Shown: piece by piece, positions 2,893 to 60,560 of the stretch
How the letters are laid out: the number at the start of each line of letters is the position of its first letter
Numbering within the stretch: position 1 is the first letter of the stretch
Source: Capsaspora owczarzaki ATCC 30864
Taxonomy: Eukaryota > Opisthokonta > Filasterea
DNA length: 64,000 nt
Assembly (NCBI RefSeq): GCF_000151315.2
Contig: NW_011887305.1
Span: 516,458 to 580,457, forward strand
Direction of reading: 5' to 3'
The notes under the pieces: model-generated
Database searches by the model: none
The model's input: only the letters and a program-made list of their open reading frames with translations
Told to the model about the DNA's origin: nothing
Position numbers and translations under genes: made by a program

Positions 2893-4873
2893 ATGCTGTC
2901 GTATCAGAGTATGACCCAGAGCCCGCAGGATTTATATGACACTGTCAAGAATGCGAGTGGACAACTCAGGTAAGAGAAAGCCGAATTCTGGTAATGTGTG
3001 GCTGCATGTGTTCAGACGAATTGGAGGACAGTCTGCTCAATAGGCAGATTGGCGAGGTTGGTGCGCGGGCGATTGCTGAGACACTCAAGGTGAACAAGAC
3101 ACTGAAATATCTCGAGTAAGGCATCTCGCTTTGAGTGATGAATGTGAGAGAAAGTGATCCTGCCGAGTATGAAGAACACTCACAGATGGAGGGGGGATGA
3201 ACAGTCTGGACAACAATCTGATTGGAGATGCTGGAGCGCAGTCCATTGCTGAGGCACTCAAGGTAAACACGACCTTGAAAGCGCTCAGGTAAGTCATCTA
3301 AGATTGTTGATGCAAACGACTTTCAATGGAGAGGACGGACAGTCTGGCTAAAAATCAGATTGGCGATGTTGGAGCGAACGCGATTGCTGAAGCACTCAAA
3401 GTGAACAAGACCCTGACTTGGCTCGAGTAAAGCATCGTTCTTTGACTGAAGCATACGAGTGGGTGATGCAGCAGATGACATTCAAATGCTCACTGATGGA
3501 AGGGAAAGGACAGTTTGGGCAAGAGTCGGATTGGCAATGCGGGAGCGCAGGCCATTGCTGAGGCACTCAAAATGAACGCGATGGTGACTGAGATCGGGTA
3601 AAGCATCTCTCTTCAAGGATGCTTGTGTATGTGCGATCCAGCAAACGAATTCAGAGTGCTCACGAATGGAGAGAATTCACAGGCTCAAGCAGAATCAGAT
3701 CGGCAATGTTGGAGCGAACGCGATTGCTGAAGCACTCAAAGTGAACAAGACCCTGACTTGGCTCGAGTAAAGCATCGTTCTTTGACTGAAGCATACGAGT
3801 GGGTGATGCAGCAGATGACATTCAAATGCTCACTGATGGAAGGGAAAGGACAGTTTGGGCAAGAGTCGGATTGGCAATGCGGGAGCGCAGGCGATTGCTG
3901 AGGCTCTCAAAGTGAACACGACGCTGATTGTGCTCTTGTACGGCCGCTATCCCTCATAGTTCCACTTGGAGCAGAGAGCTAACTGATGGATGGAACGCAC
4001 AGTTTGGAAGACAATCAGATGTTGGAGCCCAGGCGATTGCCGAAGCGTTCAAGGTGGACCCGAAGCCGAGGCTTACAACGTATGGTGTCGTGCACTTTAA
4101 CTTTGCCAGGGTCATCCATATCACTCACTTGCATTGCTCAACAGTCTGAAGCGGAATTGCATTAGCAATGCTCGTTCTCAAGCAATCAATTTATATAGGA
4201 GCTATGATGGACGGGGCCTTTAGTAAGTTGTCCTTGCCAACTGAAGCCATTGAAGCTCACGCGAGCTGTCCAACCAATGGAGTGTGCCTTCCGATTGCTC
4301 ATTTACGGTGCTTTTTCGTTGCACAGCATTTACGAGCAGGTTAACCCTCGTGCATTCTCCTTACTTCCACGCGTAGCAACCGCTGACGACCTTCAGACCG
4401 TGTTTTGCTTGCTGACCAGCGGACCGGAGCTGAAAGATCAGTCCACATTTCTGCCAGCATTACCAGCCGAGATTGCCGACATCATTATGGACGAAGCGCA
4501 ATACTGGCAAGGCGAGCAGCATACCAAACGAGACCCGTACGATGACCGTCCTGTCAAGGTCACAGTGCCACAAAGCATCAATGGAAACTCGACCCGTGTG
4601 AAAGCAATTCAAGTGGTTCGGGACACGGGGAAACTTTACCACCGCATCGGTGACAACGTCTTTGGCTTGATTGTTCGAGATGAGCAAGGTACTGTTCAAT
4701 ATGAGCATGAGGCGAAAGCGACTTTTGTCGATTCTACACTCGTATCCGCGACGCTCTGGCCAGCGAGCACTCCTATCATCAGGCAAATCCGCGTGGGTTG
4801 GGAAGTTCAGGTTCAACCCAGCAAGTCTGCCCGAGATGTGCTGTTTGAATCGCTCGTTGTTAGATGTATGTAG
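2893..4873 (+). CDS. LRR protein with F-box-like C-terminal domain (copy A)
   Basis: Exon 1 (2893-2969) opens with ATG. Six exons of exactly 84 nt follow (3032-3115, 3205-3288, 3343-3426, 3514-3597, 3683-3766, 3854-3937), each encoding one 28-residue ribonuclease-inhibitor-type leucine-rich repeat of the kind IGDAGAQAIAEALKVN, all in phase 2. Two degenerate repeat exons come next (about 4003-4079, 77 nt; 4145-4222, 78 nt), then a terminal exon (4327-4873) with a domain of about 180 residues beginning near LPALPAEIADIIMDEA, which resembles an F-box-like helix. The 77-nt exon has lost 7 nt and breaks the frame; if it is skipped, the other exons sum to 1206 nt in one frame. The gene at 58546-60207 is a clear paralogue with the same layout. 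Function is unknown; LRRs of this type bind proteins. Expression of copy A is uncertain. Confidence 0.75.
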
Positions 4874-18269: not shown

Positions 18270-20630
18270 ATGAATGTCTGGACGACTGAGGAAGGCGGCG
18301 TGATGCACAATGTTGGTCCATTGCTGCCGCCACTCAATCTGCCAGACCAACCAGCGACGACCGAGGGGTTGTCCAGTCGACGACTCCTCGTGAATACGTC
18401 CATCACGACTACCACTACTGATACTGATACTGCCGATACTACCGATACTGCCGATGCTGACGATACTGCTGCAGCGCCGCGCGGAATCGACGCCCTGCCA
18501 AACGAACTCTTCCTGACAATCTTTGCCTACCTCGACGCAGTGACCTTGTTCAGCTGCAGCCAAGTCTGCTCGCGTTGGCGCGGTCTCATGTCGTCGGCCG
18601 TCATGCTGCGCTCGATGGACCTCTCGCGGGACTTTGGCTCGGTGGCCTTGCTGACCCTCGTCGAATCGGCTGCTCCTGCTGCTGCAGACCTCCTTGCGTC
18701 ATCAGCACTGCAGAGCGCCCCGTCGGATGCCGCCACCACTCGACTGGCAGCTGCGGCTGCCAATAGTACTAGCAATGCCTCGAATGCACCGAGCCATGAC
18801 AGGGCAGCAGCAGGCACGGCACGCAGCCCCAAATTTCGCATCGCCTGGCGAAACTCGACCCGTTTGACACCGTTACCAGATCTCACCGGTCAAGTCGCCA
18901 CAACTATTGCGCAGACTGTGGAAGCAGACTCGACACTGGCAAATAAGACCCCTGAGACTGCTACTGACGCTTTACCGCGGGATGCACACGATGAAGAACC
19001 ACCCATCAAGATTGTACTCGCAAGACGATCTTCCAGTTCCCTGCCGTCGCAGTCGGGTTCGTCGACAGCGGTGCCTCCTGTTGAAGGCGTGCGCAATTCT
19101 ACTGCTGCTGCTGCTGTCCCCACTGCTACCACTGCTGCTACTGCTGCTACTGCTGCTACTGCTGCTACGGCCCTTGTGGAGATGGCTCGCGCGCCTGAAC
19201 TTTCCTCAAAACTCGCATCCATGCTCCTGGAAGCGGCTGCTGCGACGTCCTCGACGGCCATTTCGTCCGCTGCTCCTTCCTCTTCTAGCCTTGCCGTTAT
19301 TGATGCTGCTTCAGGACCCTCAGCCAGGGTACCGTTGCACCACCGACCAGAGGGCGACATTGTCACCCAGCTATCTCGCTGGCTACTGCGGAGACACCTG
19401 CGACTCTTCTCCTCCCACCTGCGGTACCTTGACTTTTCGCATTCGCCGGCTTTCATCTCAGAGTCCGTTCTCTGTGCATCGCTGAGTGTCGCTACCGGGC
19501 TAGTGTCGCTGAACGTGCAAGGATGCACCATCACCAATCGAACCCTGTTTTGCTTGCCGCCTTCGTTGACACACCTGGACATTTCGTACTGCATGGGAAT
19601 ATCCGCCGCTGGAATCAACCACATTGCCCATGCGTGTCCCCAATTGCGCGTGCTCAAGTGCAAGCACGTGAGTGAGATGCAGGACTTTTCCCTGACCCAC
19701 CTCGCCCTGTCTGGCCTTCGACTTTCGCATCTGGATCTTGAAGGATGTGGCCAAATCACCAATGCTGGACTCAGCGCCTTGCTCGTCGCGAGCGGTGGTG
19801 ATCTCATTGATTTGTCGTTGCGGGCCTGCGATGGACTCGATGGGAGCGCCGCTCGCGCAGTGGCTCAGAACTGTCCCTTGCTCAAACGCATCGACTTGTC
19901 CTACTTGCCGCTGGTTGACTACGACGTGACTGTTCTGGCTTGCTCATGCCCTCGTTTGACCAGCGTTCGGCTCTGGCGCTGCAACCAGCTAACGGATCTC
20001 GCCGTGACCGACCTTGCCAACTTTTGCCCCTCCATCACCGAACTCGATTTGATGCACTGCAACAGAGGATTGATCAATCCGAGCATTCACCGGTTTCCAA
20101 AGCTTCGCAAGCTCGTTCTGTATGGCTGTTCGTCGGTGACTCCCGCCACCCTCGCTCTGTGCCTCGCAATGCCTGGGTTGGAAAACATCAATCTTGCCCA
20201 TACGGCTGTCGATGACGACGCAATCGAGCAAGCAGCGCAAGTGATCAAGCAACAGTCCCACACTGACCAGGCAGACGAGAGTGTGTCAACGGTTGGCTCT
20301 GGCCAGTCGCTGCATTCGCTCACTCTGACAGACACAACGGTCGGAGATCGTGGCATTGCCGCATTGGTGCAATTTGCACACAAACTGCAAGTGCTCGTTC
20401 TCCGACGGAGCCCAGTCACGGATGCGTCTACAACGCTTCTTGCCTCTGGCTTTCCGCTTTTGCGCCAACTGTTCTTGAACGATTGCCGTGGCATCACCGA
20501 TGAGTTTGCCAATCGATGGCCATCCGGCAGCCCCGTGCGCGAGCTCCACACCCGGGGCACGAACCTGAGCAAGCGCGGTGTTGCGTTGTTGTCCCATCAC
20601 GCACAAGATGACAGATTGGAATTGAGTTGA
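18270..20630 (+). CDS. F-box/LRR protein (FBXL-type SCF substrate receptor)
   Basis: Single exon, 786 aa, TGA at 20628-20630. The frame stays open upstream to 18099, but that part is hydrophobic T-rich leader, so the start was placed at MNVWTTEEGG (18270). An F-box lies at about residues 73-118 (IDALPNELFLTIFAYLDAV, CSQVCSRWRGL). A long low-complexity A/S/T linker (about 130-360) follows, then 12-14 leucine-rich repeats of the cysteine-containing FBXL/AMN1 type (for example LTHLDISYCMGISAAGINHI and LDLEGCGQITNAGL) to the end. FBXL proteins bind Skp1 through the F-box and choose targets with the LRR solenoid. The target cannot be read from sequence. The exact orthologue among FBXL2/20/AMN1-like genes was not resolved. 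Confidence 0.88.
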   Translation: MNVWTTEEGGVMHNVGPLLPPLNLPDQPATTEGLSSRRLLVNTSITTTTTDTDTADTTDTADADDTAAAPRGIDALPNELFLTIFAYLDAVTLFSCSQVCSRWRGLMSSAVMLRSMDLSRDFGSVALLTLVESAAPAAADLLASSALQSAPSDAATTRLAAAAANSTSNASNAPSHDRAAAGTARSPKFRIAWRNSTRLTPLPDLTGQVATTIAQTVEADSTLANKTPETATDALPRDAHDEEPPIKIVLARRSSSSLPSQSGSSTAVPPVEGVRNSTAAAAVPTATTAATAATAATAATALVEMARAPELSSKLASMLLEAAAATSSTAISSAAPSSSSLAVIDAASGPSARVPLHHRPEGDIVTQLSRWLLRRHLRLFSSHLRYLDFSHSPAFISESVLCASLSVATGLVSLNVQGCTITNRTLFCLPPSLTHLDISYCMGISAAGINHIAHACPQLRVLKCKHVSEMQDFSLTHLALSGLRLSHLDLEGCGQITNAGLSALLVASGGDLIDLSLRACDGLDGSAARAVAQNCPLLKRIDLSYLPLVDYDVTVLACSCPRLTSVRLWRCNQLTDLAVTDLANFCPSITELDLMHCNRGLINPSIHRFPKLRKLVLYGCSSVTPATLALCLAMPGLENINLAHTAVDDDAIEQAAQVIKQQSHTDQADESVSTVGSGQSLHSLTLTDTTVGDRGIAALVQFAHKLQVLVLRRSPVTDASTTLLASGFPLLRQLFLNDCRGITDEFANRWPSGSPVRELHTRGTNLSKRGVALLSHHAQDDRLELS

Positions 20631-58545: not shown

Positions 58546-60207
58546 TTAGACATAGCCAACATAAAGCGATTCAAACTGCACATCTCGAGAAGACTTGCTG
58601 GCTCGAACTTGAACCTGCCAACCGGCGCGCATTTGTCGGATGACAGGATGATTGGCTGGCAGGATTGTCACAAGCTCGAGGCTCGAATTGACAAAAGTCG
58701 GTTTTGCTGAAAATTCGTATTGAACAGCGCCTTGCTCATTTCGGATAATCAAATCAAAGCCGCTGCTGCCGTTGCTGTCGAAACGGTTTCCCATGTCACG
58801 AAACACTTGAATTGCTTTCACACGAACCGAACCTCCATCAATCCTTTGAGGTAGTGTGACTTTCAGAATACGCTCGGGGGAATCATAAAAATGCGATCGC
58901 TTGGTGTGCTGCACGCCTTGCCAGTAGTGCGCTTCGTCCATAATGAGCTCGGCAATCTCGGCTGGCAGTGCTGGTAGAGATGTGGGTTGATCCTCCAGCG
59001 CCAGTCCACTGCTCAGCAAGTGAAACACGTTCTGAAGGTCTTCAGCAGTTGCCAATCGTGGACGCGAGGAGAATACAAGAGGGTTGATCTGCGTGTCGAT
59101 CCTGCGCACGAACAAGCAAAGTGAATGAGCACTCAGCGGGGCAACTCCTTTGGTTGGAGCACAAATCGTTCGGACAAACAACGAACAAAAGTCTATTCAG
59201 AGTTCGGTTGACTTGACGCGCTTCACCAATCGCTTGAAGACCAGCCTTGCCAATGAAATTGAATCGTATACTATCGCTTAAAGAGTGAGCAAGGTATGTC
59301 TGAGCCTCGCCCAACGACCGAGACCAGCAAGCAAAGCGCACAGCAACTTACTCGAGCCACCACAGCTGTTTGTTCACCATGAGTGCCCCAGCGATTGCCT
59401 GCGCTCCAATGTCACCAATCTGATTGTCACCAAGACTGTCCATCCCTCCATCAGTGAGCACTCTGTGTCATCTGTGAATCATTCACACACATGCATCAGT
59501 CAAAGTGAGATGTCTTACTGGAGAGAACTCAGCGTCGTGTTCACTTTGAGTGCCTCGGCAATCGCCTGCGCTCCAGCATCGCCAATTTGATTCTTATTCA
59601 GACTGTCCATCCCACCCTCCGTCGGTGAGCACTCCTAGTACATTTGACTTGACCCACTCACAAGCACCAGTAGATGCGAAATGACATACTTGAGCCAATC
59701 CAGCGTCTTGTTCACTTTGAGAGCTTCAGCGATTGCGTGCGCTCCAGCATCGCCAAGCCGATTCTCTTCCAGACTGTCCATCTCCTCCATGAATGAGCAC
59801 TCGTCTGAATCACCCACTCTCATGCGCCGACAAGAGTGAGATGCCTCACTCAAGAGAAGTCAGCGTCGTGTTCACTTTGAGTGCCTCAGCAACGGCCTGC
59901 AATCCAGCATCGCCAATCTGATTCTGGTACAGACTGTTCATCTCCTCCGTCAGTGAGCCACTCTTATCGCTCTGTGCTGCATCACCCGCTCACGTGCATC
60001 AGTCAAAAGAAGCTGCCTTACTCGAGCTCCTTCAGCGTCGTGTTCACTTTGAATGCTTCAGCAATCGCTCGCGCTCCAGCATCGTCAATCTGCTTTTTGT
60101 GCAGACTGTCCCTCCATTTCGTCAGTAGCACCTCGGCTTTTATCTTACACGAGCTTTTCACTCGCATTGTTGACTTGGTCGTACAGCTCTCGCTGTCTTT
60201 CAGTCAT
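58546..60207 (-). CDS. LRR protein with F-box-like C-terminal domain (copy B, intact)
   Basis: Eight exons: 60207-60149, five repeat exons of exactly 84 nt (60105-60022, 59933-59850, 59773-59690, 59602-59519, 59435-59352), one 90-nt divergent repeat exon (59276-59187) and a terminal exon 59101-58546 (TAA). They sum to 1125 nt, 374 aa. Each repeat exon encodes a ribonuclease-inhibitor-type LRR (QIGDAGAQAIAEALKVNTTL). The last exon begins IDTQINPLVFSSRPRLATAE, then LPALPAEIAELIMDEAHYW and a beta-rich region (RVKAIQVFRDMGN, FDLIIRNEQGAVQYEF, IRQMRAGWQVQVRASKSSRD). It is paralogous to 2893-4873 in exon phase, repeat sequence and terminal domain. The LPxLPAEI helix resembles an F-box or fungal F-box-like start (inference). 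Function is unknown. Confidence 0.85.
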
Positions 60208-60560
60208 GCTCTCGCTGTCTTTCAGTCATGCTCTGATACGAATGCATTGGAAGCACTCAGAACAACGAAACAAAAAAAAGGTTGTAACTTGGAAGTGACT
60301 CGACGTCAGTGTCTTCTCTCCAGATTTTGTGCTCGACATTCACATCGCTGGTGAGCAAAAGTAGCTGGGAACATGAATCAGATTCTCGTGAGCCAGAAGT
60401 TGAAGATGTCAAAACAATAGGGAGGATATTGTAGATTTATCAGATTCAGTGACACCGTCTCTCCTCCCTTCGACCCTCAGTGCACAAAGTCATTTTACTT
60501 TTCTTTTTGCTTGGTTGCTCAGACAGAGGAGGTCAGTCCTTTCCAACGCAAAACTCAATC
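60208..60560. promoter_or_regulatory. Head-to-head intergenic region, LRR copy B(-) / SH3BGRL-like(+)
   Basis: 353 bp between divergent starts. A 22-bp direct duplication (ctctcgctgtctttcagtcatg) at the left edge duplicates the LRR gene's start codon context. No other motif recognised. Confidence 0.45.

What the first reader, a model, noticed from the sequence alone, without database searches (positions are those of the whole stretch)
58546..60207. Inverted paralogous LRR gene family with one LRR per 84-nt exon and a conserved F-box-like C-terminal domain
Two genes near opposite ends of the window, in opposite orientation, share exon phase (always 2), repeat consensus, N-terminus (ELYDQVNNAS vs DLYDTVKNAS) and a terminal domain of about 180 residues (LPALPAEIAxxIMDEA, then a beta-rich part). 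Symmetrical single-repeat exons allow repeats to be gained, lost or skipped without breaking frame, a design suited to diversification of a recognition surface. The combination of RI-type LRRs with an F-box-like, fungal-looking terminal domain is not one I can name, so this is the best candidate for an undescribed system here.
Basis: partly seen in the sequence, partly recalled or inferred. Interest (0 to 1): 0.7.

Follow-up and report, generated by a model that had tools for sequence, protein, structure and literature searches.

The report
Shuffled LRR receptor-like gene repertoire
The two genes belong to a family of about a hundred in this single-celled eukaryote, each a string of interchangeable one-repeat exons whose variability sits mostly on the likely binding surface, joined to an undescribed end domain, while similar repeat strings lie beside protein kinases; it looks like an immune-type recognition repertoire, though no function was shown.

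Summary
Both genes are real: exon 1, six 84-nt single-LRR exons split in phase 2, and a terminal exon. The terminal domain matches 133 places in the genome, 97 of them at least 480 nt, on 17 contigs. It has no convincing Pfam, NCBIfam or PDB relative. The F-box reading is weak: 12 columns, probability 5%.

(2) Near-identical introns sit beside different exons, within and between genes, so modules recombine with breaks inside exons. (3) The same module core lies upstream of TKL-type kinases, 11 loci so far; one kinase-side intron is 95% identical to one in a terminal-domain gene.

Best explanation: a cytosolic recognition repertoire with exchangeable outputs, evolving like fungal HNWD receptors. 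Positive selection is suggested, not proven. Function, expression and the terminal fold were not shown, and both window copies carry damage. The species is probably Capsaspora owczarzaki, by inference. Gene models cover 30 of 133 matches.

The parts
60149..60207 (-). copy B exon 1, MTERQRELYDQVNNASEKL(V)
   Evidence: a similar exon found by a simple search in 18 of 30 family loci
60022..60105 (-). copy B LRR exon 1 (84 nt)
59850..59933 (-). copy B LRR exon 2 (84 nt)
59690..59773 (-). copy B LRR exon 3 (84 nt)
59519..59602 (-). copy B LRR exon 4 (84 nt)
59352..59435 (-). copy B LRR exon 5 (84 nt)
59187..59270 (-). copy B last LRR (cap) exon (84 nt)
58546..59101 (-). copy B terminal exon: 'LPALP' domain and stop
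   Evidence: 133 genome matches
60186..60229 (-). 22-nt tandem duplication over the start of copy B; the upstream ATGs run out of frame into a stop
   Evidence: (repeat D3), sequence
2893..2969 (+). copy A exon 1, MLSYQSMTQSPQDLYDTVKNASGQL
3032..3937 (+). copy A six intact LRR exons: 3032-3115, 3205-3288, 3343-3426, 3514-3597, 3683-3766, 3854-3937
3325..3951 (+). copy A internal duplication of a two-exon unit: 3325-3611 and 3665-3951, 287 nt, 90% identical
   Evidence: D2
4010..4250 (+). copy A degenerate region (limits approximate): frame-shifted 7th module (match at 4019-4069) and a broken last module, left out of the open model
   Evidence: (D3), sequence printed
4327..4873 (+). copy A terminal exon, 'LPALP' domain and stop

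Best explanation
These are two members of a germline-diversified family of intracellular LRR receptors. Each protein has a short conserved head, a variable number of RI-type LRRs (one per 84-nt phase-2 exon) and a conserved output domain. Ligands would bind the concave face, where the five exposed residues of each strand (xxLxLxx) vary strongly while the scaffold is held. Modules, with their introns, are copied within and between genes. The intron sits inside the strand codon at position 28, so exchanges can re-pair the two halves of a binding strand and any number of modules keeps frame. The same LRR stock appears to feed at least two outputs: the undescribed 'LPALP' domain (the window genes) and a TKL-type kinase, in one of three loci read with a RING finger. 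Shown: architecture of the window genes, family size, concentration of variation, intron sharing across modules, and LRR modules of the same kind upstream of kinases. Inferred: that LRRs and kinase are one gene, ligand binding, cytosolic location (no hydrophobic leader seen in exon 1), a role in non-self or microbe recognition, and that the LPALP domain signals.
For: Entropies: positions 2, 3, 25, 26 have 3.66, 3.40, 2.66, 3.53 bits in 118 unique internal modules and the split codon 28 has 3.42 over 148 junctions; other positions at most 2.07. The module finder scored 13 conserved positions, which biases those downward; among the 14 positions it did not score the other ten are still at most 2.07. 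dN at the four whole hypervariable codons over exon-wide dS is 2.0-2.9, bootstrap limits above 1 in 4 of 4 overlapping identity classes, against 0.37-0.47 for the scaffold. Exchange: 10 independent intron pairs at >=0.95, 4 within one gene, only 4 at the same index. Two outputs: of the first 100 of 258 module places (contigs C1-C9), 61 lie within 4.5 kb upstream, same strand, of an LPALP match, and 27 of the other 39 of a kinase match, at 11 distinct kinases; by my arithmetic chance gives about 1 and 0.25, though places cluster. Kinase by Pfam in L059, L060, L061, RING in L059. L059 intron 1 is 94.7% identical to an intron of LPALP gene L044. None of 97 matches of >=480 nt shows an internal stop.
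Against: Against local dS of the same hypervariable codons the ratio is 0.93-2.18 and the bootstrap interval includes 1 in 3 of 4 classes; in 30 intron-chosen pairs dN and dS at those codons are about equal (0.61 and 0.64). So fast turnover without positive selection is not excluded. The codons tested were picked from the same modules' variability, though they are also the structurally expected ones. The two ends of an exon show no association across genes (r 0.007, p 0.37), nor do strand halves across an intron (r -0.056, p 0.97), which exchange predicts but saturation also gives. Sharing does not clearly fall off on the downstream side of the intron. Only 1 of 3 kinase-side introns was >=0.9 identical to an LPALP intron. 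12 of 100 module places have neither partner. The terminal domain itself evolves fast (omega 0.25-1.43 in 15 independent pairs, median 0.47 of 435). No polymorphism, expression or ligand data. Both window copies carry damage.
Confidence: 0.58

Rival explanations
1. Substrate adaptors of SCF ubiquitin ligases: the LPALP helix acts as an F-box that binds Skp1, and the LRRs choose substrates.
For: The motif LPALPxEIAExIMDEA resembles the start of an F-box; hhalign to 8 F-boxes of this genome aligns LPxEIxxxI. A locus with the same kind of LRRs carries a RING finger (L059), another ubiquitin-ligase part.
Against: Only 12 columns, probability 5%. No F-box model among the Pfam matches of 30 members, while the same genome has 37 PF12937 matches, none at either terminal exon of the window. 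In F-box-LRR proteins as I recall them the F-box precedes the LRRs.
Confidence: 0.13
2. A family kept busy by concerted evolution alone: repeats recombine because they are repeats, and the strand positions vary because they are unconstrained, not because variation is selected.
For: Hypervariable codons also have raised synonymous divergence, and in random pairs they are about as different as intron interiors. Copy A has an internal 287-nt duplication and decaying modules.
Against: Terminal-domain matches of >=480 nt show no stop (97 of 97) and the scaffold is under constraint (dN/dS 0.37-0.47). Strand residues facing the concave side are where LRR proteins commonly bind (general knowledge), and dN over exon-wide dS exceeds 1.
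Confidence: 0.22
3. Ordinary signalling scaffolds: LRRs hold different cellular partners and the family expanded for division of labour, not for recognition of foreign molecules.
For: RI-type LRRs match several housekeeping proteins in the PDB (LRRC34, RanGAP, dynein regulatory complex).
Against: Here about a hundred copies share interchangeable modules and vary at the binding face.
Confidence: 0.12

Closest known systems
HNWD (het-d, het-e, het-r) NLR family of Podospora anserina
   Same: High-identity repeats exchanged within and between family members, with four interaction-surface codons under diversifying selection while the rest is homogenised (PMC1805685, abstract and passages seen; PMC2873952, abstract and outline).
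   Different: There WD40 repeats in NACHT proteins, 10 genes; here LRRs, one per exon, no NACHT in the window models, far more genes and apparently at least two unrelated outputs.
Variable lymphocyte receptors (VLR) of jawless vertebrates
   Same: [quoted passage not shown] that it lies on the concave strand surface is from general knowledge.
   Different: VLRs are assembled somatically and act outside the cell (general knowledge); here the variation is in the genome sequence and no leader or anchor is seen in exon 1.
NLRP/NLRC and ribonuclease inhibitor LRRs
   Same: RI-type LRR of 28 residues; best PDB match ribonuclease inhibitor, E 5.2e-48, and NLRPs among the hits.
   Different: No NACHT in the models; output domain lies after, not before, the LRRs; one LRR per exon.
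Plant LRR receptor kinases
   Same: LRR array next to a TKL-type kinase in the kinase loci.
   Different: Different LRR class as I recall it; no membrane anchor between LRR and kinase noticed in L059-L061 (not tested by a predictor); the window genes have no kinase.

Membership tests
RI-type LRR proteins (PF13516 LRR_6) | 28-29-residue repeats matching LRR_6 and the ribonuclease inhibitor | tested here: met
   PF13516 E 1.2e-9 on three joined modules, junction residues approximated; 1dfj E 5.2e-48
F-box / F-box-like (PF00646, PF12937) | match to the F-box motif | tested here: not met
   no F-box among the Pfam matches of 30 members; hhalign 12 columns, probability 5%
F-box / F-box-like (PF00646, PF12937) | binding to Skp1 | not testable with these tools
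   needs a pull-down
NLR (NACHT or NB-ARC with repeats) | nucleotide-binding domain in the same gene | tested here: not met
   the two spliced window models hold only exon 1, LRRs and the terminal exon; Pfam on the terminal exon finds none
Diversified repeat receptor repertoire (HNWD-like mode) | variation concentrated on the interaction surface of otherwise uniform repeats | tested here: met
   surface assigned from the LRR consensus, no structure made
Diversified repeat receptor repertoire (HNWD-like mode) | repeat exchange within and between genes | tested here: met
   across output types 1 of 3 introns
Diversified repeat receptor repertoire (HNWD-like mode) | positive selection at surface codons | tested here: inconclusive
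   above 1 against exon-wide dS, not clearly against local dS
Diversified repeat receptor repertoire (HNWD-like mode) | role in self/non-self recognition | not testable with these tools
   needs strains and assays

The most novel reading that the evidence does not exclude
A unicellular relative of animals carries a VLR/HNWD-like recognition system made of one stock of LRR exon cassettes, shared and exchanged between genes with different outputs: a new domain in about a hundred genes, and kinase or kinase-RING outputs in at least eleven loci seen so far. The intron inside each binding strand makes the strand itself the unit that is re-paired.
Probability: 0.4. Interest if true: 0.87.

Novelty: new variant of a known kind. 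Interest (0 to 1): 0.72.

Why it matters
Repertoires of diversified intracellular receptors are known from plants, fungi and animals. If this is one in a close unicellular relative of animals, with a single LRR stock feeding unrelated output domains, it would give a single-celled model for how recognition repertoires arise, and point to a new, widely copied output domain. The claim is directly testable with a second strain and RNA-seq.

Tried and rejected
F-box membership: rejected. Prokaryote and viral relatives of the terminal domain: 0 confirmed of 20 and of 106 pattern matches. PDB profile: three hits, all short LPxLP stretches of bacterial LRR proteins, E 0.077-3.1, rejected as chance. 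Structure of the terminal domain from the two window copies: pLDDT 38.8, two helices then seven strands; too poor, so no fold search was run. LRR_6 over the genome found only 7 places at E<=0.01, 150 of 562 candidates scored, probably because single repeats score low; replaced by a DNA pattern. Association between the two ends of an exon and across introns: no overall signal; among 20 pairs with identical 3' ends the next 5' ends agree at 0.63 against 0.38 on average. Module pairs chosen by scaffold identity gave higher ratios (4.2-9.7 against exon-wide dS, 1.5-3.0 against local dS); not used as evidence because that choice lowers the denominator. Species: T-box genes and integrin-beta matches at four loci fit Capsaspora owczarzaki as I recall it; the Rel domain was not found. 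The main genome paper of that species is not held, so an earlier description there cannot be excluded. Ten paper searches, eight of them with Capsaspora as a term, listed no paper that I recognised as describing this family; full lists were seen only, the others were cut to their best rows, and I judged by titles, abstract starts and passages of three papers.

Full report
What is there. Copy B lies on the minus strand, 60207-58546, and copy A on the plus strand, 2893-4873. In both models exon 1 is followed by six exons of exactly 84 nt and a terminal exon; every junction is GT-AG and splits a codon after its second base. The repeat reads LxxNQIGDAGAQAIAEALKVNTTLxxL plus one split codon, 28 residues. 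Three joined modules match Pfam LRR_6 (1.2e-9) and the spliced LRR part matches ribonuclease inhibitor in the PDB (5.2e-48). The two terminal domains are 61% identical.

Damage in the two window copies. In copy B a 22-nt tandem duplication covers the start: the upstream ATG codons, which correspond to the MLSYxSMTERQRE start of several relatives, now run into a stop, and the open frame begins at the inner ATG (sequence). In copy A a seventh module is frame-shifted and the last one is degenerate; the frame is open only in a model without them.

Family size. A search of the window's own genome (27.46 Mb, 29 contigs) with the terminal domain gives 133 matches, identity 100% down to 34%. Of the 111 rows taken further, 97 are at least 480 nt long; they lie on 17 contigs, most densely on the window's contig C14 (12, 13 per Mb; density worked out for the 13 contigs whose length I had), with 9 neighbouring pairs within 10 kb. 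Six of the 133 rows show an internal stop, all in matches of 399 nt or less. Gene models were made for 30 of the 133. In 29 of 30 loci at least three upstream 84-nt LRR exons were found, in L056 one (the spacing filter missed copy A, whose six exons are). Exon 1 was found by a simple search in 18 of 30; some of the others have short flanks. The genome has T-box genes and integrin-beta matches at four loci, which with its size suggests Capsaspora owczarzaki; this is inference from recalled facts, and a Rel-domain search was negative.

The terminal domain. Thirty members align well (66% mean column identity). No Pfam family reaches a convincing score in any of the 30 (best 0.005), nor NCBIfam for two (best 0.16), nor the PDB by profile. 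Prokaryote and viral collections gave none. The F-box idea rests on LPxEIxxxI: against 8 F-boxes from the same genome hhalign aligns 12 columns at probability 5%, E 0.0077. AlphaFold2 with two sequences is unusable (pLDDT 38.8); its secondary structure, two helices then seven strands, is only a hint. The domain evolves fast but mostly under constraint: 15 independent pairs have omega 0.25-1.43, median of all 435 pairs 0.47, 2 above 1.

Where the LRRs vary. The module statistics use 177 modules of 29 loci, copy A not among them. In 118 unique internal modules, positions 2, 3, 25 and 26 carry 3.66, 3.40, 2.66 and 3.53 bits; the split codon 28, over 148 junctions, 3.42; the other positions 2.07 or less. 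The finder demanded conserved residues at 13 positions, so those are biased low; but of the 14 positions it ignored the ten besides 2, 3, 25, 26 are also at most 2.07. These five are the exposed residues of the xxLxLxx strand, the concave face, as known for LRR proteins in general; no structure was made here. For independent module pairs, dN at the four whole hypervariable codons over exon-wide dS is 2.67, 2.93, 2.39 and 2.02 in four overlapping identity classes (17, 32, 40, 49 pairs), all with bootstrap limits above 1; for the scaffold it is 0.44, 0.47, 0.37 and 0.39. Measured against dS of the same codons it is 1.42, 2.18, 1.04 and 0.93, and only the second interval excludes 1. In 30 intron-chosen pairs dN and dS at these codons are 0.61 and 0.64. 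In random pairs they differ about as much as intron interiors do. Positive selection is therefore suggested but not proven.

Exchange. Between modules of different genes and positions the intron is often better conserved than the exon beside it. In 30 independent pairs with intron identity of 0.9 or more, intron divergence is 0.05, scaffold dS 0.26 and hypervariable dN 0.61; choosing pairs by intron inflates this contrast. In 10 independent pairs at 0.95 or more, 4 lie within one gene and only 4 at the same index; residues 25 and 26 before the intron agree in 0.9 and 0.8 of pairs and residues 2 and 3 after it in 0.8 and 0.8, but residues 2 and 3 at the far end of the first exon in only 0.4 and 0.5; at 25 and 26 of the second exon the figures are 0.8 and 0.6. 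In 26 pairs at 0.85 or more the far end of the first exon is again low (0.23, 0.23 against 0.42-0.54 next to the intron) while the second exon shows no fall (0.5, 0.42). Random pairs give 0.07-0.30. So the copied tract tends to start inside the upstream exon; the numbers are small. Over all modules the ends of an exon are not associated, which fits exchange but also saturation. Copy A holds a recent case: 287 nt with two exons, duplicated at 90% identity.

A second output. The module core pattern occurs 258 times in the genome, 0 times reversed. Of the first 100 places listed (contigs C1 to C9), 61 lie within 4.5 kb upstream, same strand, of one of 132 terminal-domain matches. Of the other 39, 27 lie likewise upstream of one of 78 matches to a kinase (92 rows at E<=1e-15, 14 weaker or fragmentary rows dropped), at 11 distinct kinases; 12 have neither. 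Chance would give about 1 and 0.25 by my arithmetic, though places cluster in arrays. The kinase was found by reading L059 (kinase 6.1e-42 and RING 6.6e-10); L060 and L061 also hold kinases, without a RING match. The LRR exons read in L059 (two) and L060 (three) have the same 84-nt phase-2 form; in L061 only the cap module lay in the stretch. That LRRs and kinase are one gene is inferred, not shown. In L060 the usual DFG reads NFG and the catalytic loop lacks its lysine, so it may be a pseudokinase (sequence). Of three kinase-side introns compared with 145 introns of terminal-domain genes, one is 94.7% identical to an intron in L044, the others at most 0.82; for comparison, introns of terminal-domain genes have a median best match of 0.85 in another such gene. 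L062 was a further array whose continuation I could not name.

Mechanism. The best reading is a recognition repertoire: variable LRR faces as sensors, exchange of cassettes as the source of new faces, and conserved C-terminal domains as outputs, with the kinase-RING locus pointing to signalling or ubiquitin. The closest model is the fungal HNWD family, where repeats are exchanged within and between ten genes and four surface codons are positively selected (PMC1805685, passages). What is recognised, and what the LPALP domain does, is unknown here.

Novelty. The searches named in Tried and rejected listed no description that I recognised, but most lists were cut and the main genome paper of the presumed species is not held, so the claim of novelty is limited to those searches.

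Noticed in passing
L059 (G000:C5:1126400-1129400): LRR modules of the same type upstream of a TKL-type kinase with a C-terminal RING finger; 92 related kinase matches in the genome.
   Followed up: partly
L060, reverse strand: The kinase of this LRR-kinase locus has NFG for DFG and an altered catalytic loop, perhaps a pseudokinase.
   Followed up: no
G000:C11:381074-381619 and 382948-383739: A terminal-domain match and a kinase match of the LRR-kinase type lie 1.3 kb apart on the same strand; could be neighbours or one gene.
   Followed up: no
window 18486-18596: An F-box-like match (PF12937, 1.9e-11, over the cut-off) in another open frame of the window.
   Followed up: no
window 60186-60229: 22-nt tandem duplication at the start of copy B puts upstream ATGs out of frame.
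   Followed up: partly
G000:C8:471664-472197 and 490475-491008; G000:C12:45568-46101 and 93714-94247: Pairs of terminal-domain matches with identical scores in opposite orientation about 18 and 48 kb apart, as from inverted duplications.
   Followed up: no
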